Source: Gemmatimonadota bacterium
GTDB taxonomy: Bacteria > Gemmatimonadota > Gemmatimonadetes > Longimicrobiales > Gaopeijiaceae
Length of the DNA stretch: 64,000 nucleotides
Reading direction: 5' to 3'
Assembly: GCA_021295815.1 (NCBI GenBank)
Contig: JAGWBQ010000010.1
Location: 1 to 64,000, forward strand
In this document: one piece after another, positions 13,574 to 53,871 of the stretch
Numbering within the stretch: the first letter of the stretch is position 1
Layout: every line of letters starts with the position of its first letter
The notes under the pieces: generated by a model
The model's database searches: none
Told to the model about the DNA's origin: nothing
What the model saw: only the letters and a program-made list of their open reading frames with translations
Program-made: the position numbers and the translations under genes

Positions 13574-15283
13574 ATGTCACCTCGTCTCTCCCGCATCGCC
13601 ACCTTCGCCGTTCTCACCCTCACCGGCTGCGCCGTGGAGGAACGCCCCGGGGCCTCCGACGAGGCTGCGAGCTCGACGGTTCACTACGACCTGATAATCG
13701 AGGGAGGCTGGATCGTCGACGGCACCGGCAATGCGGCCTACCCCGGCGACGTGGCCGTCCTCGGAGACCGGATCGCGACCGTCACCGCTCCCGGCATGCT
13801 CGCCGAGGCCGTGGCGGCCACTCGCATAGACGCGAACGGCAGGATCGTGGCTCCCGGCTTCATCGACATCCAGAGCCACTCGCGCGGGAGCTTCGTCGGC
13901 GACGGCGACGGCCGGGTCGTCTCGAAGGTCACCATGGGCGTGACCACGGAGATCATGGGCGAGTCCACGAGCAACGGTCCCGTGACCGACTCGGTGCTCG
14001 TACAGGCTGGCGAAGACGCGGGCCGCACGGTCTTCTCCACCTTCGGCGATTGGATGGAGGCGATGGAGGAGCACGGCGCGAGCGTCAACTTCGGCTCCTT
14101 CGTAGGCGCGACCACCATCCGCATCTACGGCATGGGCCACGACATGGGCGCCGCAGGGCCGGAACAGCTCGAGCGGATGCGAGAAGCCGTGCGCGAGTCG
14201 ATGGAGGACGGCGCATTCGGCATCGGCTCCGCCCTGATCTACCCGCCTGGCAACTTCGCCTCCACCGAAGAGCTCGTCGCCATCAACGAGGCCGCCGCAC
14301 CCTACGGCGGCGTCTACATCACCCACCTCCGTTCGGAAGCGGACGGCTTGCTGGAGGCGATGGACGAGGCCATCCGCATCGGAGTTGAGGCGGGGGTGCC
14401 GGTGGAAATCTACCACCTCAAGGCCGCAGGACGGCGGAACTGGCACAAGGCCGCGCTGGCGGTGGCGAAGATCGATTCGGCCCGGGCGGCAGGCATTGAC
14501 GTCCAGGCCAACATGTACCCGTATACCGCCGGATCGACGGGACTCACCGCCTGCTTCCCGCCTTGGGCTTCGGCGGGGAACCGGCTTATGGAAAGGCTCG
14601 CCGATCCCGAAGAACGCGCACGCATAAGGGAGGAGATGGAGAACCCCAGCGGCACGTGGGAGGACCTCTGCGGTCTATCCACTCCCGAAGGGACCTTGAT
14701 CGTCGGCCTGGACAAGCCCGAGAACGAGCGCTACGTGGGCAGCTATCTCTCCGAGATCGCGGCGGACATGGGTAAGGACTGGATCGAGACCGCCTTCGAC
14801 CTCGTGGCGAGCGAGGAGCAGCGAGTGGGCACGGTCTACTTCATGATGAGCGAAGAGAACGTCGCCATGCAGATGGCACAGGAGTGGATGAAGTTCGGCA
14901 CCGACGCCGGCGGCTGGGACCCGGAGGGGGCCACCGGCCTGACCCACCCGCGGGCCTACGGCACGTTCTCGCGCATACTTGGGAGGTACGCGCGCGAAGA
15001 GGGCGTGCTCTCGCTCGAGGAAGCGGTGCGCAAGATGACCTCCGCCGTCGCCACCCGCATCGGGATCCGCGACCGGGGGCTCGTCGTGCCGGGCTACTTC
15101 GCCGACCTCGTGGTCTTCGATCCCGAGACCGTCGCGGACCACGCCACCTACACCGAGCCGCACCAGCTCTCCAGCGGAGTCGATCACGTCTTCGTGAACG
15201 GGGTGGCCGTGGTCGAGAACGGCGTACACACCGACGCCATGCCGGGCCGACCGGTCCGGGGGAGGGGGTGGAGGGGGCGGTAG
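13574..15283 (+). CDS. D-aminoacylase / N-acyl-D-amino-acid deacylase family amidohydrolase, lipoprotein
   Basis: A 569-residue amidohydrolase-superfamily enzyme with an N-terminal lipoprotein signal (IATFAVLTLTGC). It has the composite beta-sandwich start YDLIIEGGWIVDGTGNAAY, the barrel entry VAPGFIDIQSHSRGSF, VEIYHLKAAGRRNWHKA for later ligands, and the closing GLVVPGYFADLVVFDPETV. Family members cleave N-acyl-D-amino acids or related amides. The first metal motif reads QSHS instead of the usual HxH, so the metal site differs. ATG at 13574 starts the signal peptide. The last ~140 bases of the gene, with the promoter cassette behind it, are duplicated at 18388. Confidence 0.85.
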   Translation: MSPRLSRIATFAVLTLTGCAVEERPGASDEAASSTVHYDLIIEGGWIVDGTGNAAYPGDVAVLGDRIATVTAPGMLAEAVAATRIDANGRIVAPGFIDIQSHSRGSFVGDGDGRVVSKVTMGVTTEIMGESTSNGPVTDSVLVQAGEDAGRTVFSTFGDWMEAMEEHGASVNFGSFVGATTIRIYGMGHDMGAAGPEQLERMREAVRESMEDGAFGIGSALIYPPGNFASTEELVAINEAAAPYGGVYITHLRSEADGLLEAMDEAIRIGVEAGVPVEIYHLKAAGRRNWHKAALAVAKIDSARAAGIDVQANMYPYTAGSTGLTACFPPWASAGNRLMERLADPEERARIREEMENPSGTWEDLCGLSTPEGTLIVGLDKPENERYVGSYLSEIAADMGKDWIETAFDLVASEEQRVGTVYFMMSEENVAMQMAQEWMKFGTDAGGWDPEGATGLTHPRAYGTFSRILGRYAREEGVLSLEEAVRKMTSAVATRIGIRDRGLVVPGYFADLVVFDPETVADHATYTEPHQLSSGVDHVFVNGVAVVENGVHTDAMPGRPVRGRGWRGR

Positions 15284-15515
15284 GCGGTTCAGCGGTCGCT
15301 CGCCCGCGGACCGCGGATCACCCGAGCGTACGCCTCGGCATCAGAGCTGCATCGCATCATCCCGAAGCGCCTGCACGTGCCCGCCGAGGCGCATCCCCGT
15401 GCATGACACACCTCCGAAACGACGGCTCTTGACACCCGGGCGACACCCGCTATCTTGCTCGCCCTACGTCGCGATGGTCATCCCGACCTTCGAGACCGTC
15501 AATCACCTCTTGCTG
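15141..15515 (+). repeat. direct repeat copy 1 (D-aminoacylase 3' end plus promoter-leader cassette)
   Basis: This stretch reappears at 18388-18753 with a constant offset of 3247 bases, from the TACACCGA of the D-aminoacylase C-terminal region through its TAG stop, an untranslated spacer and the TTGACA/TATCTT promoter. By eye there are about a dozen mismatches over roughly 340 aligned bases and no indel until the end. The two copies bracket unit 1 of the propeller array. Confidence 0.85.
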
Positions 15516-15536
15516 GGCGAGCCGCCGGAGGACAGC
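15400..15536 (+). promoter_or_regulatory. promoter-leader cassette A
   Basis: A conserved upstream block (CATGACACACCTCCGAAAC) precedes TTGACA at 15429-15434, a 16-base spacer and TATCTT at 15451-15456, a near-consensus sigma-70-type promoter. The leader then shares GTCGCGATGGTCATCCCGAC with copies at 18655, 20470 and (reverse strand) 52320-52470. It ends at a strong ribosome site GGAGGA (15527-15532) before the leader peptide. The four copies precede different gene sets. Confidence 0.75.
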
Positions 15537-15614
15537 ATGAAATTCTTCACCGCCCCCCCCCTAAATGAGCTGACCGGTTGGCTCGACTGCGAGACCACCG
15601 GGGGGACCCAATAA
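15537..15614 (+). CDS. leader peptide A with poly-C tract (25 residues)
   Basis: ATG at 15537, five bases behind GGAGGA, encodes MKFFTAPPLNELTGWLDCET plus GGTQ. The run of nine C at 15553-15561 encodes the Pro residues. The stop TAA at 15612-15614 is two bases before the ATG of propeller A, so translation is likely coupled. The part up to NELTGWL matches what the leader of copy D would encode in another frame, where it would fuse to a signal peptide. Here the similarity ends after TGWL, as if the rest of a signal peptide had been replaced. Confidence 0.5.
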   Translation: MKFFTAPPLNELTGWLDCETTGGTQ

Positions 15615-15616
15615 GA

Positions 15617-16837
15617 ATGATGGAGCTTCCCTCGGTGCGTGTGTTCGTCGTCGAATTGACATTGATCGTAGGAGTAGTAACGGGAGATACTGTTCCTGTG
15701 CCGGCGCAGCAGGTTGTTGACCTGCCAGCGTTGGACCGCCCACTAGCAGTCGAATACAGGGAGTTGCAGCGATTCGGGGCCTTGACCCACGGATGGGATG
15801 CGTTCGCAAGAGTAAGCTCTGTGGCCTTTCTCTTAGACGGAGCGTTAGTAATAACTGATCTGCGAAGCCAAAGGGTGACGGTTGCGAATGTGATGACCGG
15901 TGAGCTCTTATCCGAAATATCCAAACAGGGTGACGGACCTGGTGAAATTCGCCAGATACATGACGTGCTGACTGCTCCCAATGGAATCACCGTGTACGAC
16001 AGAGGCAAGATGGCGTTTCAGGTCTACTCAATGAATGGAGAGCTTGAAAGTTACGTTCCCGTTGGTGTGGCGGCAAGGGAGTGGCTGTCGCCAGATCTCG
16101 TCGCGTCGTCTCAACACCTGGAGGTCATACACGTCCCCGAGGTCGTGTCTTACTCCACCCATCGTCCGATCATGCGGCTAACGCTCGATGGTGCAAGGAT
16201 GAAGAGCAGCCTGTGGGCTCATGCGTGGCGGTCTGGCGATCAAAGGAACGATAGCAACGACCAGTTTCGATGGGACCCGAGAACGGGTAGTTCAGGGCTC
16301 GACGCGTTCTATCCAGATTTGTATTTGGATGTGCTCCCTGACGGTAGCCTCCTAATGGTGGACTCGTCGGCCTATGAAATCAAGGTGGTCTCACCTGCTT
16401 CTGGGACCCTATCACGAATTATCCGTCGGCCGGTACCGCCTGTCAGGGTGACTGATGCGATAAGGGACGAGGAAAAAAGTCGTCGTCGTCGGGAGGCGGA
16501 CACAAGGGTCCCTCCCTCTCCTAGAGAGTTGATGGATGCTTACCTGGCGGCTATTGACGAGTTGGCGTTCTACCCCGAGCTGTCAGTCATCACTGCGATT
16601 CAAGCGAGCCGAGCGGGTGAGGTTTGGGTCCGTCGACGGTCATCGGTCGATCCGTTGGACGAGAACGGGCCGATCGATGTGATCTCCGCGAGTGGTGATT
16701 ACATGGGCACAATAGCCGCCTCGGATTTCGACATGCCGGCTGCTCTTGGTCCGCTTGGACTCGTGTCCTTTCTCGAGGTAGACGAACGCGGCGTCCAGAT
16801 CGTTGTCGTGGGGGAGCTCTTCCTGGAGGCCGGATGA
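15617..16837 (+). CDS. secreted 6-bladed beta-propeller protein A (low GC)
   Basis: A 406-residue exported protein: signal peptide (VRVFVVELTLIVGVVTGDTV, cleavage near PAQQ) then repeated propeller blades, with the family signature SKQGDGPGEIRQ near residue 100. Members of this 6-bladed beta-propeller family are exported and usually of unknown ligand; no catalytic residues are evident. Base composition is unlike its neighbours: 15661-15720 has 31 of 60 G+C and 15841-15900 has 30 of 60, against 40 of 60 in a sample line of the upstream gene. This suggests recent acquisition. The start is one of two adjacent ATGs. The following gene overlaps by four bases. Confidence 0.75.
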   Translation: MMELPSVRVFVVELTLIVGVVTGDTVPVPAQQVVDLPALDRPLAVEYRELQRFGALTHGWDAFARVSSVAFLLDGALVITDLRSQRVTVANVMTGELLSEISKQGDGPGEIRQIHDVLTAPNGITVYDRGKMAFQVYSMNGELESYVPVGVAAREWLSPDLVASSQHLEVIHVPEVVSYSTHRPIMRLTLDGARMKSSLWAHAWRSGDQRNDSNDQFRWDPRTGSSGLDAFYPDLYLDVLPDGSLLMVDSSAYEIKVVSPASGTLSRIIRRPVPPVRVTDAIRDEEKSRRRREADTRVPPSPRELMDAYLAAIDELAFYPELSVITAIQASRAGEVWVRRRSSVDPLDENGPIDVISASGDYMGTIAASDFDMPAALGPLGLVSFLEVDERGVQIVVVGELFLEAG

Positions 16838-18308: not shown

Positions 18309-18331
18309 GGCAGGCAATCCCGACCCCCCCC

Positions 18332-18364
18332 CCGGTGGTCACGGTACCGCGCCGTGGTCACCGG
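18332..18364 (+). other. conserved 13-bp RNA hairpin, copy 1
   Basis: CCGGTGGTCACGG (18332-18344) can pair over 13 positions with CCGTGGTCACCGG (18352-18364), with two G-U wobbles and a 7-base loop. It begins 24 bases after the propeller c stop, just behind a run of ten C. A second copy at 20340 keeps all pairs despite base changes. There is no U-tract, so it may be a terminator-like or RNA-stabilising structure, not a classical intrinsic terminator. Confidence 0.55.
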
Positions 18365-18387
18365 GGCATGACTGCTACGAGACCCGC

Positions 18388-18530
18388 ACGCCCCCTACAC
18401 CGAACCGCACCAGGTCTCCAGCGGGGTCGATCACGTCTTCGTGAACGGGGTGGCCGTGATCGAGAACGGCGCGCACACCGACGCCATGCCGGGCCGACCG
18501 GTCCGGGGAAGGGGGTGGAGGGGGCGGTAG
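18388..18530 (+). pseudogene. duplicated 3' fragment of the D-aminoacylase-like gene
   Basis: Translates as YTEPHQVSSGVDHVFVNGVA and on to MPGRPVRGRGWRGR and TAG, nearly identical to the last 46 residues of the gene ending at 15283. It has no start and no upstream part. It travels with the promoter cassette as part of the ~370 bp direct repeat, marking the boundary of a duplication. Confidence 0.85.
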
Positions 18531-18753
18531 GCGGTTCGGCGGTCGCTCGCCCGCAGACCGCGGATCACCCGAGCGTACGCCTCCGCATCAGAGCTGCGTC
18601 GCATCATCCCGAAGCGCCTGCACGTGCCCGCCGAGGCGCATCTCCGTGCATGACACACCTCCGAAACCACGGCTCTTGACACCCGGGCGACACCCGCTAT
18701 CTTCCTCGCCTTACGTCGCGATGGCCATCCAGACCTCGCACTGTCACCACCTT
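18388..18753 (+). repeat. direct repeat copy 2
   Basis: Second copy of the 15141-15515 segment (offset 3247). Similarity ends in the leader just after CACCACCTT. Everything between the two copies is unit 1 of the propeller array. Confidence 0.85.
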
Positions 18754-18755
18754 GC
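18655..18755 (+). promoter_or_regulatory. promoter-leader cassette B
   Basis: TTGACA at 18676-18681, 16 bases, TATCTT at 18698-18703, inside the same conserved block as copy A. The leader diverges after ~18753, so the Shine-Dalgarno site and leader peptide of copies A and D are absent; a different small frame follows at 18825. Confidence 0.75.
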
Positions 18756-18824
18756 GAATGGCAGGGGAGCGCCTCCCCCTGGAATTACGCGTTCGCTAAA
18801 TTCCGGTACAACCCAGGAGGATAG

Positions 18825-18933: not shown

Positions 18934-20198
18934 GTGGTCCTACTTTGTTGGACAGTCCGAGGGCAAAGTCAAGGTGGATGCCGACTGGGGTTGAGAGCCC
19001 TCGGGGACCTGTGCAGAGCCGCCATTTCGGTGGCGGTTGTCTTGTTTCTGGGTACCGTGCCTTGTGCCAGCCAGCACACCGGGCCGACCCGGGCGATCGA
19101 CACTCAATTCACCGAGGTGTTCTGGATCGGTGACGAGGAATCGGAGCGGCAGTTCGGGGACGTTGCAGCGATGGAGTTCACCCCGGACGGCCGCCACCTT
19201 GTCGTGCTCGATAGGCTGGAATTCAGAGTTGTCGTGTACGACATGGAAGGTGCCGAGGTCGCGTCGTGGGGGCGTCAGGGCGATGGCCCCGGGGAGTTTA
19301 GACGCCCCCCTCGGGAGCTGGCCGTCTCCAGGGAAGGATTGATTGCGATCGGCTACTCGGGAAGCGCGGAGCTGTTCGACATCCATGGGAAACCGATCGA
19401 TACCCGTTCGTTCCGCGGACGCGGCGTTATCGGGATGTTCTTCGATGACCGAGAGCGGCTGCTGGTCGAGGCCGTTTCCCTGCGAGCCGTTTCTCTGGGA
19501 GAGGAACCGCCGTTGCAACTGATCCGTCTCGACGACGACGAGGTGCTATGGACGTCGAGACCCGTGCTCCACAAGCCGGGTGGGGTAAGGGTGCATCTTT
19601 ACGGTGCCGTCCCGATGATCGATCCCATTGGAGACAACCGCGTCGTGGTGGGACACACCGACCGCTACGATTTTGCCATCCTCGATGCCGGTACCGGACA
19701 GGAGGTGGGCAGGATCCGTCGGGAAGTGCCAGTCCGCGCTGTGACCGCAAACCACAGGAGGGCACGTATGGATCTCTATACCCATTTCAACGAAGTGACG
19801 TTCGCAGAATCCTTCCCCGTTGCTACCAGAGTGTTCGCTGGTCCTTCCGGTAGGTTGCTGTGGGTACGACGCGACATGGGGTGGGTGACGAGCTTGCTCC
19901 TCCGGTCGAGAGCATGATCGAGAGCCGGGAAAACCCGATCTGGCGACTTTACGACCTGTTCCGGTCGGACGGCGGCAATTACTATGGCACAGTGGAGGTT
20001 CCCGAGGGCTTCCTGCTCTTGGCGACAACTCCGGGATTCGTGGCGGGCGTTCACCGGGACGAATGGGGCCGCGAGTCCGTGCGCGTGTTTAGGGTCCGGG
20101 TTTCGATGGACGCTCCGCATCCCCGGGAGCCGATCGACGTGTCGACATCGCGATCGCGACCCGCAGCGACTGCACCGGCCGCGGTATCCCGACGTTGA
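18934..20198 (+). pseudogene. 6-bladed beta-propeller protein d, frameshifted in a poly-G run
   Basis: Very similar along its length to the intact propeller e at 21216-22382: RAAISVAVVLFLGTVPCASQ signal peptide, FTEVFWIGDEESERQFGDVA, RQGDGPGEFRRP, LDAGTGQEVGRI. Near 19877 this copy reads GGGGTGGG where e reads GGGGGTGGG; the missing G shifts the frame and ends the protein at 19917 (MGWVTSLLLRSRA). The remaining 105 residues (GDELAPPVESMIESRENP through SRPAATAPAAVSRR) continue in the next frame to 20198. GTG 18934 is chosen for its position behind GGAGAAGGG and the microprotein stop. Either decayed, phase-variable or a sequencing error. Confidence 0.8.
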
Positions 20199-20240: not shown

Positions 20241-20339
20241 GCTCCAATCGATGGCAATGCCGTCGGTCCTCTGCGGACAAGCAACACACTAAACCAGGTC
20301 GGGCAGGCTAGGCAGGACGGGGCCTCCGATAGACCCACC

Positions 20340-20469: not shown

Positions 20470-20600
20470 GCATGACACACGTCCGAAACGACGGCCCTTG
20501 ACACCCGGGCGACACCCGCTACCTTCGTCGCCTTACGTCGCGATGGTCATCCCGACCTCGCACTGTCACCACCTTTTACTTGGGCCTATGCCCCGGAGCA
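20470..20600 (+). promoter_or_regulatory. promoter-leader cassette C
   Basis: TTGACA at 20498-20503, 16 bases, TACCTT at 20520-20525, with the shared upstream block CATGACACACGTCCGAAAC. The leader retains TACTTGGGCC and CCGGAG, as in copy D, but the leader ATG has become ATC (ACATCCAGTTCTTG) and the poly-C tract is deleted. Confidence 0.75.
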
Positions 20601-20649
20601 AACATCCAGTTCTTGAGCCGGCTGGCTCATCCGGCCGATCCTGCTCGCC

Positions 20650-21219
20650 GTGGTCGCCCTCCTCCCGCTCATCGGCGCTCCCGCCGATGCCTCCTCCGCG
20701 ACCGTGCAGGACTTCCCGGCTACCGCAGCCGAGGTGGCCGGTCCTCCGCTCCCTGTCGGAGAAACCGTTCCACCGGTGTCTGATGCGATACCGGACCTCG
20801 CGACCGACGAGATGTCTTCAGTTCGCGGAACTTCGGTGGCCGTCGCGGATCATGCCGACGTAGCGCGTAGTTCTGGAGTGGTCCATCTTGGGCCGATGGC
20901 CGCCCGCAGGCTCCGTGGTTACCCGTTTGACGATGTGGTCGCCTTGGCGTCGGGTTGTGCGGCGCCGGACGCGGGTACCGGAAATACGGACCTGGGGTGG
21001 GCACCGTTACCCGGCGGTACTGCTGAGGCCTACGCTATGGACGCCGATCCATGTGACAAAGTCGAGGAAGCTATGATGGCCGCATGCATCGAGGCGGGCT
21101 TCATGCTTGGTGAATGGCAAGGCGGCAGAGCGACCGAAGAGGAATGGAAAAAGGCCAAGGCCCTGTGCGACGACCAATGGGATGTGTGGATGATACACTG
21201 TGAACTTTCACTCAATTGA
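20650..21219 (+). CDS. small secreted protein, conserved N-half and variable Cys-rich C-half (unit 3)
   Basis: 189 residues from GTG 20650; the reading frame reaches back through CTG 20641 (LLAVVALLPLIGAPADASSA), but the ancestral ATG is lost. Signal peptide ends near APADA. The next ~50 residues (VQDFPATAAEV, PPLPVGETVPPVSDA, VRGTSVAVAD) match the unit 4 protein at 51671-52270. The remainder is unrelated to it, helical and rich in Cys (SGCAAP, DADPCDKVEEAMMAACIEAG, KALCDDQWDVWMIHCELSLN). No enzyme motif. Translation start is doubtful because no ribosome site is visible. It is followed at once by propeller e. Confidence 0.6.
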   Translation: MVALLPLIGAPADASSATVQDFPATAAEVAGPPLPVGETVPPVSDAIPDLATDEMSSVRGTSVAVADHADVARSSGVVHLGPMAARRLRGYPFDDVVALASGCAAPDAGTGNTDLGWAPLPGGTAEAYAMDADPCDKVEEAMMAACIEAGFMLGEWQGGRATEEEWKKAKALCDDQWDVWMIHCELSLN

Positions 21220-22382
21220 TGGAAATGTTGTGCAGAGCCGCCATCTCGGCGGCGGTTGTCGTGTTTCTGGGTACCGTGCCTTGTGCTGGCCAGCACACCG
21301 GGTCGGCCCGGGCGATCGACGCTCAATTCACCGAGGTGTTTTGGATCGGTGACGAGGAATCGGAGCGGCAGTTCGGGGATGTTACCGCTATGGAGTTCAG
21401 CCCGGACGGCCGCCACCTTGTCGTGCTCGATAGGCTGGCATTCGGAATTGTCGTGTACGACATGGAGGGTGCCGAGGTCGCGTCGTGGGGACGTGAGGGC
21501 GATGGCCCCGGGGAGTTTAGAAACCGGCCTTTGCACCTGGCCGTCTCCGAAGAAGGAATGATTGCGGCCGGCACCGGCCGAAGCGCGGAGTTGTTCGACA
21601 TCAGCGGGGAACCGATCGAGACCCGTTCATTCCGTGGGCACACCGCTTTCGGGATGTCCTTCGACGACCGGGGGCGGCTGCTGGTCGAGGCCGTTTCCTG
21701 GCGAGAGACAGCGCCCGTCCAACTGATCCGCCTCGACGACGACGAGGTGCTTTGGACATCTAAACCCCTGATTCCCGCGCTGTCACCCGTGGTATACAGT
21801 GTCGGCCCCGTGATTGATCCTATCGGGAGCAACCGGATCGCGGTGGGAAACACCGACCGCTACGACTTTGCCATCCTCGATGCCGGTACCGGCCATGAGG
21901 TGGGCCGGATCGGTCGGAACGTACCGATCCGCGCTGTGACCGCAGACCACAGGAGGCGACTTAGCGATCGTCTCAGCAACTCCACCGAAGTGACTTTCGC
22001 TGACACCTTCCCCGTCGCCACAGAGGTGTTCGCCGGTCCTTCCGGTAGAATGCTGTGGGTACGGCGCGGCATGGGGGTGGGTGACGAGCTTGCTCCTCCG
22101 GTCGAGAGAATGGAAGACGCGATCTGGCGGCTTTACGACCTGTTCCGGTCGGACGGCGGCAACTACTATGGCACAGTGGAGGTTCCCGAGGACTTCCTGC
22201 TCTTGGCGACAACTCCTGGTCTCGTGGCGGGCGTTCACCGGGACGAACTGGCCCGTGAGTCCGTGCGCGTGTTTAGCGTCCGGGTTTCGATGGACGCTCC
22301 ACATCCCTGGGAGCCGATCGACGTTTCGACATCGCAATCGCGACCCGCAGCGGCTGCACCGGCCGCGGTATCCCGACGTTGA
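21216..22382 (+). CDS. secreted 6-bladed beta-propeller protein e
   Basis: 388 residues. It overlaps the stop of the small secreted protein by four bases at a TTGATG start region. Signal peptide RAAISAAVVVFLGTVPCAGQ, then blades with MEFSPDGRHLVVLDRLAFGI and the family signature REGDGPGEFRN at ~95-105, and later ASWGREG, FDISGEPIETRSFRGH, RYDFAILDAGTGHEVGRIGR. It is the intact homologue of the frameshifted propeller d, identical at most positions. Exported and presumably surface or periplasmic; ligand unknown. The Pro-Ala-rich C-terminus (RPAAAAPAAVSRR) is followed by the propeller f start within two bases. Confidence 0.75.
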   Translation: MMEMLCRAAISAAVVVFLGTVPCAGQHTGSARAIDAQFTEVFWIGDEESERQFGDVTAMEFSPDGRHLVVLDRLAFGIVVYDMEGAEVASWGREGDGPGEFRNRPLHLAVSEEGMIAAGTGRSAELFDISGEPIETRSFRGHTAFGMSFDDRGRLLVEAVSWRETAPVQLIRLDDDEVLWTSKPLIPALSPVVYSVGPVIDPIGSNRIAVGNTDRYDFAILDAGTGHEVGRIGRNVPIRAVTADHRRRLSDRLSNSTEVTFADTFPVATEVFAGPSGRMLWVRRGMGVGDELAPPVERMEDAIWRLYDLFRSDGGNYYGTVEVPEDFLLLATTPGLVAGVHRDELARESVRVFSVRVSMDAPHPWEPIDVSTSQSRPAAAAPAAVSRR

Positions 22383-50513: not shown

Positions 50514-51671
50514 TTACGAGGGACGCCGACGCTCCCGAACAACGATGTCGGTTTCGGTCGGGTCGGTGCCGGCCCCCAGAGCCGGGTCATTCTCGTGCTC
50601 AGACCGTTGGGACTCCGAGGTCAGTGACGGAAACATCCCCGGACAGGCCTCGCCGCTTATCCGCCGAATCGGGTGCAGTTTGACCAGGCCTGAGGTGTAG
50701 AGCACCGTCCGAGTCGGCCGGCCGTTCCGGACGGTATCCTCATAGTCCTTGTACAAGACCAAGGCGCTGTCCTCCACGATGCCTCCGAATGAGATGGTGG
50801 GATTCGGGTCGTTTATCCGTATCACCGCGTAGCAACCGCTCCGGGGGTCGATCACCGCGCCCGCGACTTCGAGGACAATTCCCCTGACCAGCACCAGGTT
50901 GCCGTGTCCGTCTCCTGCCAGGCGCAGTTTCCGATTCCACGGGACCCGGCCTTCGGCGAACTCGGACGGGGGAAGAATCTTTCCCTCCCCACCGTTCAGG
51001 CTGTAGCTGAACACCGTGTCCGCGGCATCCTCGAAGGCGGCCACGGTGTAGGCCGACTCGCCAATGCAGAACATCGAGGTAGGCCGACTGGTAACCTTAG
51101 CTACGATTTCCTGCACGGTCCCGTGGAAGGGGAGCGCCTCTCCCTGAACGACGCCGGCGCCAAGAATCTTGTCCCCCGAGCGACCCTTTCTGACCACTCC
51201 GCCCCACGACGGGACGGCAGGTGAACCGCCGAGGTCGCACACTGCGGAACCGCCACCCGGAACCACCGGCCGCCAAAAATCTTCGACGACCTGGCCCAGT
51301 GAGTCGAGGTGCAGAACCCGGCCGTCACCGAGGACGTACAGTCCTCCGGCGGATGCCTGCGACACCGCCCTGACCGTGCTGGGGAGTTCGCGCGGACCCT
51401 CGCCCTTCGGTATCCGTACCAGACGATCCGGTTCACCGGTAAGAAGCGAGAAACCCATGACGTCGTCCGGGTGCTCCAGGTCGACCGCGTACAGGAGGTC
51501 GCGTTCGTGGTCGACGAGGAAGCGCCCGCCGGGGAGAATGGCCCTCCACTCGTCGTTGATCACGTCCCTGCCGGAGCCGAGGTCGATCTCGAGAATCTGC
51601 TGGGCGAAGGCGGTCTCCCCGCCGGCAAGCACAGCGATGGCTCCCAAGACGGTTCTGGTCAGCAGGGTCAT
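50514..51671 (-). CDS. secreted 6-bladed beta-propeller protein g (unit 4)
   Basis: 385 residues from ATG 51671, which shares a base with the stop of the small secreted protein upstream (TGATG). Signal peptide LTRTVLGAIAVLAGGETAFA, mature start QQILEIDLGSGRD, signature PKGEGPRELPS, and C-terminal SGCYAVIRIND, VEDSALVLYKDYED, LHPIRRISGEACPGMFPS. It is the intact paralogue of propeller c (17187-18308) in unit 1, although on the opposite strand and 33 kb away. Ligand unknown. Confidence 0.78.
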   Translation of the reverse strand: MTLLTRTVLGAIAVLAGGETAFAQQILEIDLGSGRDVINDEWRAILPGGRFLVDHERDLLYAVDLEHPDDVMGFSLLTGEPDRLVRIPKGEGPRELPSTVRAVSQASAGGLYVLGDGRVLHLDSLGQVVEDFWRPVVPGGGSAVCDLGGSPAVPSWGGVVRKGRSGDKILGAGVVQGEALPFHGTVQEIVAKVTSRPTSMFCIGESAYTVAAFEDAADTVFSYSLNGGEGKILPPSEFAEGRVPWNRKLRLAGDGHGNLVLVRGIVLEVAGAVIDPRSGCYAVIRINDPNPTISFGGIVEDSALVLYKDYEDTVRNGRPTRTVLYTSGLVKLHPIRRISGEACPGMFPSLTSESQRSEHENDPALGAGTDPTETDIVVRERRRPS

Positions 51672-52270
51672 CAGGTCACTTGGACGACGGGGTAGGCAAT
51701 CCAACCACAGTAACCGTAGTCGCATACGAGCACCTGAAATGACAACGAGGGGCCGATCGTGAAGGGCCCGATGGTGATCCCGACCGAGACGACAGTGACC
51801 AAGTGTTGATCCTGTAGATAGCACGTGTGCTCGTAATCCATCCCTTCACCACTCATGGCGGCCAGATCAAACCACATCCAGAAGTCGACATTTGCCAGAC
51901 TCTTCTCTTCCTCGCATACCCCCAAGCTGGAGGCCAGAGCAGCGCTTCCGGTTGTCGTTGCCTTGAAAGCGTGGGGCGCGGCACCGGCAGACTCTGTGTC
52001 AGAAACCTCAACGTCGTCACGGGCATCAATGTCACGGACATCGGCGCACACCGCAGGAGCCACATCCACGACGGCCACCGCAGTTCCGCGAGCGGGAGCA
52101 ATCCCGCCGGGCAGCAAGCCCAGCGTCGCATCAGAGACCGGTGGGATGGCCTCGTCGACCGCGAGCGGAGGATCGGTGAACCGGGCGGTGACCCGGTGGT
52201 CCTGCACGGCTGCGGAGAAGGCATCGGCGGGAGCGCCGATGAGCGGGAGGAGGGCGATCACGGCGAGCAT
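51671..52270 (-). CDS. small secreted protein, conserved N-half and variable C-half (unit 4)
   Basis: 199 residues from ATG 52270: LAVIALLPLIGAPADAFSA signal peptide, then VQDHRVTARFTDPPLAVDEA, IPPVSDA and RGTAVAVVD, matching the unit 3 protein at 20650. The C-terminal ~110 residues are different: beta-rich, with Cys in LGVCEEEKS, EHTCYLQD and VLVCDYGYCGW. The conserved upstream leader (52294-52329) stops out of frame; one more C in its ten-base poly-C run would fuse leader and this protein into one longer signal peptide. Followed directly by propeller g. Confidence 0.65.
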   Translation of the reverse strand: MLAVIALLPLIGAPADAFSAAVQDHRVTARFTDPPLAVDEAIPPVSDATLGLLPGGIAPARGTAVAVVDVAPAVCADVRDIDARDDVEVSDTESAGAAPHAFKATTTGSAALASSLGVCEEEKSLANVDFWMWFDLAAMSGEGMDYEHTCYLQDQHLVTVVSVGITIGPFTIGPSLSFQVLVCDYGYCGWIAYPVVQVT

Positions 52271-52293: not shown

Positions 52294-52329
52294 TCAGCTC
52301 ATTTGCGGGGGGGGGGCGAAAAATTGCAT
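52294..52329 (-). CDS. leader peptide D with ten-base poly-C tract
   Basis: ATG 52329 behind GGGAGATGAC encodes MQFFAPPPQMS and stops at TGA 52294. The C-run occupies 52307-52316 (G on the plus strand). With eight or eleven C the frame continues through NELTGWLIRPIMLAVIALLP into the secreted protein. Copy A has nine C but a two-base difference after the run, leaving NELTGWL in frame. Confidence 0.5.
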   Translation of the reverse strand: MQFFAPPPQMS

Positions 52330-52475
52330 GTCATCTCCCGGGCATTCGGCCCAAGCAGAAGGTGGTGACGGTTCGAAGGTCGGGATGACCATCGAAATTG
52401 CCGCGAGGATCGTAACAGGTTCTCTCCAGAGTGGCAAGAGCCGTGGTTTCGGATGTGTGCCGTATGCCGTAAACG
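52330..52475 (-). promoter_or_regulatory. promoter-leader cassette D
   Basis: Most diverged copy. The upstream block CACACATCCGAAACCACGG and TTGCCA (52437-52432), 17 bases, TACGAT (52414-52409), then the leader ATGGTCATCCCGACCTTCG and CACCACCTTCTGCTTGGGC shared with copies A and C. It drives unit 4 on the minus strand. Confidence 0.65.
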
Positions 52476-52642: not shown

Positions 52643-52678
52643 ATAAGACCGTCCGCGTCCATAAGACCGTCCGCGTCC
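52643..52678 (+). repeat. two perfect tandem copies of an 18-bp unit
   Basis: ATAAGACCGTCCGCGTCC occurs at 52643-52660 and again at 52661-52678, 54 bases before the amidohydrolase start. It may be an operator or a slippage product. The rest of 52476-52642 shows no clear gene; a TTGACG at 52604 lacks a good -10. Confidence 0.8.
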
Positions 52679-52731
52679 GTCGCGAGCCGGCGATTCCCAG
52701 GGGGTTCCGCTCCCGCCACGAGAGGATCACC

Positions 52732-53871
52732 ATGTCGAGAACCCGGTGCCTGACACTACTCGCCGCCTCGTGTCTCCTTGGCTGCGCCGATGCCGAAGCC
52801 GGCGAGGCCCTGCCCGCCAGCTCGCCGCCGCCGCAGGACGTCACCGTGGTGGAGTACGAGCCGCGCAACACCCTGGTCGTTCCGGAGAACCCCGTGACCC
52901 GGGCGCGCTTTCCCTTCGTCGACGTCCACGGACATCAGCGCGGCGGTTCGATGACGGCGGAGGCCGTCGGAGGCCTGGTCGCGGAGATGGACGAGCTCAA
53001 CATGGCCGTGATGGTGAACCTGTCGGGCGGCACCGGCCCCGAGCTCGTGAACGGTTTGTCCAACATGGCGGGTCGTCATCCGGGAAGATTCGTATTCTTC
53101 GCCAACACGACCTTCTTCGGGGTGGGCGAGGCGGACTGGGGCGAGCGAGCGGCAGCCCGGCTCGAGGAGGACGTGAGCAACGGCGCCGCCGGCCTCAAGA
53201 TCTTCAAGGGACTCGGCATGGCGGATCGCGACATTGCAGGTGACCGGATCCCGGTCGACGATCCGCGCCTGGTCCCGCTCTGGGACAAGGCGGGCGAACT
53301 CGGCATTCCGGTGCTGATCCACTCGGCCGACCCGGCTGAATTCTGGCAGCCCCACGACCGCTTCAACGAACGCTGGCTCGAGCTCCGTCTCCGCCCCAGA
53401 CGCATCCGACCGCCTGACCGCTTCCCGTCCTTCGAGCAAATCATCGGGGAGCAGCACAACCTCTTCCGCAACCATCCTGAAACCAACTTCATCGCCGCCC
53501 ATCTGGGGTGGCTGGGGCACGATCTCGAGCGGTTGGGCCGGATCCTCGACGAGATCCCCAACATGTACGTCGGGCTCGGGGCCGTGGTCTACGAACTGGG
53601 CCGCCAGCCCCGGTTCGCCCGCGAGTGGCTGATCGAGTATCAGGACAGGGTGCTCATGGGCAAGGATTCCTACAACCAGGAGGAGTTCCACACCTATTTT
53701 CGCGTCTTCGAGACGGAAGACGACTACTTCGACTACTATCGTCGCTATCACGCGTTCTGGCAGATGTACGGGCTGGGGCTGCCCGACTCCGTGCTCAGGA
53801 AGATCTACTACGAGAACGCTCTCAGGATCGTTCCCGGGCTCGACCGCAGCCTCTTTCCCGGGACAGGTTGA
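52732..53871 (+). CDS. amidohydrolase (Amidohydro_2-like) lipoprotein
   Basis: 379 residues; ATG 52732 has GAGAGG 6 bases upstream. Lipobox ASCLLGC. TIM-barrel metal ligands: VDVHGH (HxH), VLIHSADP, IAAHLGWLGHD and a late Asp in MGKDSYNQEEF. These enzymes hydrolyse or decarboxylate small cyclic or aromatic substrates; the actual one is unknown. The lipid anchor places it outside the cytoplasm. It ends four bases before the membrane-protein gene of the MoxR locus and may be co-transcribed with it. Confidence 0.8.
   Translation: MSRTRCLTLLAASCLLGCADAEAGEALPASSPPPQDVTVVEYEPRNTLVVPENPVTRARFPFVDVHGHQRGGSMTAEAVGGLVAEMDELNMAVMVNLSGGTGPELVNGLSNMAGRHPGRFVFFANTTFFGVGEADWGERAAARLEEDVSNGAAGLKIFKGLGMADRDIAGDRIPVDDPRLVPLWDKAGELGIPVLIHSADPAEFWQPHDRFNERWLELRLRPRRIRPPDRFPSFEQIIGEQHNLFRNHPETNFIAAHLGWLGHDLERLGRILDEIPNMYVGLGAVVYELGRQPRFAREWLIEYQDRVLMGKDSYNQEEFHTYFRVFETEDDYFDYYRRYHAFWQMYGLGLPDSVLRKIYYENALRIVPGLDRSLFPGTG

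What the first reader, a model, noticed from the sequence alone, without database searches (positions are those of the whole stretch)
52294..52329. Poly-C tract in the leader could switch a signal peptide on and off
Leader D has ten C and ends after 11 residues. With eleven (or eight) C the same ATG, which has a proper ribosome site, reads through NELTGWLIRP directly into MLAVIALLPLIGAPADA of the secreted protein. Leader A has nine C and is in the NELTGWL frame. Copy C has lost both the ATG and the tract. Homopolymer slippage in a translated leader is a classic phase-variation design.
Basis: partly seen in the sequence, partly recalled or inferred. Interest (0 to 1): 0.66.

Follow-up and report, generated by a model that had tools for sequence, protein, structure and literature searches.

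The report
C-tract frame switch in secreted-protein leader
A run of ten C's near the start of a bacterial gene for a small exported protein puts that gene out of frame as assembled, and a one-base change in the run would restore it and probably its partner gene; this looks like a known kind of on/off switch, but a plainly broken gene copy cannot be ruled out without reads or other strains.

Summary
Leader D has SD GGGAG and ATG 52329, a C10 tract at 52316-52307, and stops after 11 codons. C8 or C11 would give one 218-219 aa ORF through the signal peptide of the secreted protein.

New facts:
(1) The leader (promoter, 5'UTR, SD-ATG, tract) occurs ten times in this 2.47-Mb genome. A profile built from it found no convincing match in any other genome searched (up to 395 of the phylum).
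(2) Copies without a long tract read straight into the following ORF, so D's frame is the derived, broken one. A second copy, on contig C13, is broken in the same phase.
(3) D's protein is the first gene of a pair. Its TGA overlaps the ATG of a 385-aa second gene that has no SD, so tract length should set both.
(4) Relatives in another genus have equivalent pairs: small secreted proteins ending C-x-Y-G-x-C-G, beginning MKK/MKR behind an SD and without a C tract. D's internal ATG is therefore an unlikely normal start.

Against a switch: other copies have decayed, D and C show no purifying selection in their shared N-terminal part, mismatch-repair genes are present, and long C/G runs also occur in dxr and beside acs. 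Slippage phase variation leads (about 0.45), decay next (0.27). Partly supported.

The parts
52409..52437 (-). Promoter-like -35 TTGCCA (52437-52432), 17-nt spacer, -10 TACGAT (52414-52409) of leader D
   Evidence: Read from sequence; aligned with the same position in the other leader copies, e.g. TTGACA/TATCTT in A. Consensus match only.
52330..52390 (-). Conserved 5'UTR of leader D with GGGAG Shine-Dalgarno at 52339-52335
   Evidence: Most conserved part of the ten-copy leader family
52294..52329 (-). Leader ORF as assembled, MQFFAPPPQMS*, ATG 52329-52327, TGA 52296-52294
52307..52316 (-). C10 homopolymer tract that sets the frame (C8 or C11 restores one ORF)
51671..52270 (-). Small secreted protein, 199 aa from the internal ATG without an SD (219 aa from 52329 in the C11 frame); ends VLVCDYGYCGWIAYPVVQVT
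   Evidence: family with CxYGxCG ending
50514..51671 (-). Second cistron, 385 aa, probably a secreted beta-propeller-like protein; ATG overlaps the TGA of cistron 1 (TGATG) and has no SD
15429..15614 (+). Leader A: promoter-like TTGACA/TATCTT (15429-15456), SD GGAGG, ATG 15537, C9 15553-15561, 25-aa ORF ending TAA 15612-15614, 2 nt before the propeller ATG 15617
15617..16837 (+). 6-bladed beta-propeller protein downstream of leader A
   Evidence: PF17170 E 2.5e-5, above cut-off; A/B/C profile matches NHL propellers in the PDB
18631..18762 (+). Leader B: promoter and 5'UTR only; SD, ATG and tract lost; following propeller frameshifted near 19887
20498..20641 (+). Leader C: ATG changed to ATC, tract deleted
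20650..21219 (+). Small secreted protein of copy C, TGA overlapping the ATG of the propeller gene 21219-22382

Best explanation
The C tract lies in the N-terminal coding part of the first gene of a two-gene transcript: small secreted protein, then a translationally coupled second secreted, probably propeller-like, protein. Replication slippage changes the C count. In frame (C8, C11), ribosomes starting at the SD-ATG translate the whole secreted protein and are delivered onto the SD-less overlapping ATG of the second gene (ON). Out of frame (C10, as assembled, or C9), they stop after 9-11 codons, about 620 nt short of the second gene (OFF). The same leader serves several operons, so each could switch independently; A is as assembled in the coupling frame, D and the C13 copy are not. 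Shown by sequence: leader family, frames, SD pattern, overlaps, in-frame ancestral state. Inferred: slippage, reversibility, coupling, and benefit.
For: Ten leader copies with conserved promoter, UTR and SD-ATG. Copies with short or interrupted tracts (contigs C7, C9; C24b, C24c) are in frame with the following ORF, so in-frame is ancestral; D and C13 are both broken, and in both the only frame lesion seen is at the tract (C13 is seen only to the contig end). D's two ORFs are otherwise open, and the CxYGxCG ending and the conserved positions of cistron 2 are kept. Internal ATG 52270 lacks an SD; upstream ATGs have GGAG 5-6 nt away; second-cistron starts have weak or no SD and overlap or nearly abut. 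Homologues start upstream with MKK/MKR. Tract length differs at this site in nearly every copy. In N. meningitidis, homopolymers of 8 or more were predominantly variable in deep sequencing (PMC5084427).
Against: No length variation observed in any strain or read. Sibling copies decay by other lesions: B propeller -1, C24b propeller +2, C start and tract lost. dN 0.24 against dS 0.20 between D and C over 75 codons. MutS, MutS2 and MutL domains present. C/G runs of 10-14 also occur in dxr (in frame) and beside acs, so such runs are not reserved for surface genes. The tract is absent from homologous operons of genus g37.
Confidence: 0.45

Rival explanations
1. Decay. D is a duplicated gene copy whose frame was broken by an irreversible (in practice) slip in a C run, one of several dying copies of a multicopy secreted-protein operon in a small genome.
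For: B propeller has a 1-nt loss in a G run, C24b propeller a 2-nt insertion, C lost its ATG and tract, B lost its SD-ATG; D/C dN/dS about 1.2; genome 2.47 Mb against mostly 3-4.5 Mb in the family.
Against: D has no other lesion in about 600 codons; the C-terminal CDYGYCG motif and the TGATG overlap are intact; the break sits exactly at the tract in both broken copies, D and C13.
Confidence: 0.27
2. Assembly or consensus error: the true tract is C11 or C8, or the population is mixed, and D is simply in frame.
For: Fragmented 35-contig assembly with N gaps at other copies of this very leader (C13, C24), so reads at these repeats are hard to place; homopolymers are error-prone.
Against: A G10 run in dxr is assembled in frame; D's region has no gap; two independent copies share the broken phase.
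Confidence: 0.12
3. Programmed slippage: -1 ribosomal frameshifting at C CCC CCC, or transcript slippage on the C run, makes a fraction of full-length protein from the fixed C10 allele.
For: D and C13 both need the same -1 shift; P- and A-site CCC codons can re-pair; a small hairpin follows about 5 nt downstream in D.
Against: Hairpin is not stronger than shuffles in D (z -0.67) and shows no covariation; in-frame copies have the same sequence without needing a shift; transcript slippage is described chiefly at A/T runs (PMC3711429).
Confidence: 0.09
4. Short upstream ORF with reinitiation, or control by tract length at RNA level (as with RepG in H. pylori): the 11-aa or 25-aa leader peptide tunes translation of a protein that starts at the internal ATG (D) or the propeller ATG (A).
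For: Stop-to-internal-ATG distance is 23 nt in both D and C13; A's 25-aa ORF ends 2 nt before the propeller ATG; graded control through a homopolymer in an mRNA leader is known (PMC8295292).
Against: Internal ATG has no SD and gives a signal peptide without positive charges; it is CTG in copy C; homologues start upstream; the contig C7 and C9, C24b and C24c copies read through. No sRNA was searched for.
Confidence: 0.07

Closest known systems
Homopolymer (poly-C/poly-G) slipped-strand phase variation within coding regions of surface proteins, Neisseria and Campylobacter (PMC5084427; PMC3711429)
   Same: C tract of at least 8 near the 5' end of an ORF for an exported product; one-base changes switch a full-length and a truncated product
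   Different: Length variation not observed; multicopy leader shared by several operons; a lineage not known for it; the tract lies before the hydrophobic core of the signal peptide
Helicobacter pylori tlpB-hp0102 mRNA leader G-repeat controlled by the sRNA RepG (PMC8295292)
   Same: Homopolymer in the mRNA leader of a two-gene transcript, affecting both genes
   Different: There the repeat is a graded sRNA target; here the tract is inside a reading frame and no sRNA is known
6-bladed beta-propeller / NHL proteins (PF17170 DUF5128)
   Same: Gene after leader A matches PF17170 above cut-off; A/B/C profile matches NHL propellers in the PDB
   Different: D's second gene matches no Pfam or NCBIfam family and only weakly resembles the A/B/C profile

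Membership tests
Slipped-strand (homopolymer) phase-variable gene | Homopolymer of about 8 or more within coding sequence or promoter | tested here: met
   C10 at 52307-52316 between an SD-ATG and the ancestrally fused ORF
Slipped-strand (homopolymer) phase-variable gene | Unit changes switch between full-length and truncated product | tested here: met
   C8/C11: 218/219 aa; C9/C10/C12: 9/11/10 aa
Slipped-strand (homopolymer) phase-variable gene | Tract length differs between strains or within a population | not testable with these tools
   No other genome of the genus found; leader not found in family, order or phylum sets; no reads
Slipped-strand (homopolymer) phase-variable gene | Length differences at the site among homologues | tested here: met
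   Paralogues only: C10, C8TC8, C9, C7, C7TTC5, TCCCC, deleted. Divergence and slippage not separable
Slipped-strand (homopolymer) phase-variable gene | Expression shown to switch | not testable with these tools
   Needs an experiment
Translationally coupled gene pair | Stop of gene 1 overlaps or abuts start of gene 2 and gene 2 lacks its own strong SD | tested here: met
   TGATG in D, C and C13; 2-nt gap in A and C24a; weak or no SD at these starts. Coupling itself not measured
-1 programmed ribosomal frameshift site | Slippery heptamer plus conserved downstream stimulator structure | tested here: not met
   C CCC CCC present; hairpin z -0.67 and no covariation
Known RNA family or riboswitch in the 5'UTR | Rfam match | tested here: not met
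   No match at gathering score in the window

The most novel reading that the evidence does not exclude
One multicopy promoter-leader cassette carries a mutable C tract in front of several coupled operons for small secreted CxYGxCG proteins and propeller-like partners, so this bacterium shuffles which secreted pairs are made, each copy switching on its own. The secreted CxYGxCG/propeller pair would be an undescribed system.
Probability: 0.3. Interest if true: 0.65.

Novelty: new member of a known kind. Interest (0 to 1): 0.42.

Why it matters
[quoted passage not shown] A multicopy, tract-bearing leader in front of secreted-protein operons in a little-known lineage would be a case where a whole repertoire sits behind one kind of switch, and it can be tested simply by counting C's in reads. 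It also draws attention to an unnamed family of small secreted proteins (ending CxYGxCG) encoded just ahead of propeller-like genes in related genera.

Tried and rejected
Looking for the leader outside this genome: relatives, family (121), order (154) and phylum (395) genomes with a sequence profile gave only sub-threshold, chance-like hits such as DnaK and permease coding regions. A 20-base gapped pattern over 84,980 species gave 36 scattered matches; the best-scoring by profile is inside a permease gene. Viral contigs: none. Rfam: none. 5'UTR hairpins: no covariation; hairpin after the tract: no covariation. Loss of mismatch repair as a cause of tract growth: MutS, MutS2 and MutL domains present. 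AlphaFold model of cistron 2 from four window sequences was poor (pLDDT 47) and was not used for fold search. PDB and NCBIfam searches of D's proteins: nothing useful.

Full report
Check of the observation. On the minus strand a promoter-like pair (TTGCCA, 17 nt, TACGAT) is followed by a 5'UTR, GGGAG (52339-52335), ATG 52329 and, 13 nt after the A of that ATG, ten C (52316-52307). As assembled the ORF is MQFFAPPPQMS and stops at 52296-52294. Changing the C count shows that C8 and C11 give single ORFs of 218 and 219 aa through NELTGWLIRPIMLAVIALLPLIGAPADA, while C9, C10 and C12 stop after 9-11 residues. Leader A with nine C reads MKFFTAPPLNELTGWLDCETTGGTQ and stops at 15612-15614; copy C has ATC for ATG and no tract.

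More than chance? In the window, C10 runs are expected about once by composition, so length alone is not striking. In the whole genome, distinct C/G runs of 8 or more number only 35 in 2.47 Mb. Four of them lie in the first 45 nt of the ten leader copies, against 0.006 expected, but these copies share one ancestral site.

A leader family. A 301-nt query found ten copies in the window's own genome and nothing of note in 38 relatives. A profile built from nine copies found the same ten plus one sub-threshold hit (E 0.08), and no convincing match in 121 family, 154 order or 395 phylum genomes. The alignment shows conserved promoter hexamers, UTR, SD and ATG. The tract site is C10 (D), C8TC8 (contig C13), C9 (A), C7 (contig C9), C7TTC5 (C24b, C24c) and TCCCC (contig C7), and is deleted in C and C24a; B has lost everything after the UTR.

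Which frame is ancestral? The contig C7 copy reads MSFTLTSSPNELTRSLSGVVRCAVPLLVVVAAIGAPVGA... straight into a 378-aa protein related to the C24 propeller-type ones. The contig C9 copy reads MLPPLIELFAKLIPPIMLAVVAPLPLIGAPAG. C24b and C24c also read through into their propeller-type ORFs. Hence the stretch after the tract was coding and in frame with the upstream ATG. D and the C13 copy are both broken, in the same phase, and the only frame lesion seen in either is at the tract (the C13 operon is visible only to the contig end).

What the tract controls. D's 199-codon ORF ends GTGACCTGATGACC: its TGA overlaps the ATG of a 385-aa second gene. The same overlap occurs in C and in C13, and a 2-nt gap in C24a and A. 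These second starts have weak or no SD, whereas leader ATGs have GGAG 5-6 nt away; D's internal ATG 52270 has none. By established principle (translational coupling; see PMC3711429) frame loss at the tract should silence both genes. That is inference, not measurement.

What the products are. Homologues of D's second gene, about 40% identical, abound in another genus (g37, up to 16 per genome). Several are preceded by a small secreted protein that begins MKK/MKR, usually behind an SD such as AGGAG, and ends with C-[D/Y/S]-Y-G-x-C-G or a close variant (loci L127, L131, L135, L137, L140, L151, L152). D's first protein ends VLVCDYGYCGW and so belongs with them by motif and gene position. None matches Pfam or NCBIfam at threshold. 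Those homologues have no comparable C tract at their start, so the tract is particular to this lineage. Because they start before the hydrophobic core with lysines or arginine, D's internal ATG (MLAVIALLPLIGAPADA, no positive charge, no SD) is an unlikely natural start. A's second gene is a PF17170 6-bladed propeller, and the A/B/C profile matches NHL propellers. D's second gene shares a GEGPRELP/GDGPGE motif with them but is otherwise unassigned, and its model was poor.

Evidence that cuts the other way. Sibling copies are decaying: the B propeller has a 1-nt deletion in a G run and the C24b propeller a 2-nt insertion; C has lost ATG and tract. Between D and C over 75 codons dS is 0.20 and dN 0.24, and between C and C24a 0.33 and 0.23, so constraint on the N-terminal part is weak. 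MutS, MutS2 and MutL domains are present. A G10 lies in frame inside dxr (gene named from its protein motif, by inspection) and a C14 lies shortly before the likely start of an acetyl-CoA synthetase gene, so long C/G runs are not confined to surface genes. No second strain or read set was available, and the assembly has N gaps at other copies of this leader.

Programmed frameshifting was considered because D and C13 need the same -1 shift at C CCC CCC. The hairpin that follows in D is no stronger than shuffles (z -0.67) and shows no covariation. RNA-level control by tract length, as in the RepG system of H. pylori (PMC8295292), cannot be excluded.

Verdict. The frame-setting role of the tract in an ancestrally continuous, probably coupled secreted-protein operon is well supported (about 0.85). 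That it is a reversible switch is plausible but unproven (0.45). Decay of a duplicated copy is the main rival (0.27). Kind: homopolymer phase variation, a new candidate member in a new gene family.

Noticed in passing
window 51671-52270 (-); loci L127, L131, L135, L137, L140, L151, L152: Unnamed family of small secreted proteins ending C-[DYSE]-Y-G-x-C, mostly with G after, encoded directly before (often overlapping) beta-propeller-like genes in this genome and in genus g37 of the same family; no Pfam or NCBIfam match.
   Followed up: partly
G000:C7:213804-213817 (L025, L164): C14 tract, the longest C/G run listed, 17 nt after an ATG with GGGAG and in frame with it, just before the likely start of an acetyl-CoA synthetase gene; C15 or C16 would break that extended frame.
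   Followed up: partly
window 18324-18333: C10 run next to an inverted repeat (GGTGGTCACGG...CCGTGGTCACC) after a propeller-like gene, a possible terminator; partly repeated near 20334.
   Followed up: no
window 15140-15439 and 18387-18686: 300-nt direct repeat, 95% identical, upstream of leaders A and B: recent duplication of the promoter region and the upstream gene's 3' end.
   Followed up: no
window near 19887: Propeller gene after leader B has a 1-nt deletion in a G run relative to the copy after C, so it is split.
   Followed up: yes
window 52643-52679: Tandem CATAAGACCGTCCGCGTC duplicate between leader D and the divergent amidohydrolase-like gene (about 52733-53871).
   Followed up: no
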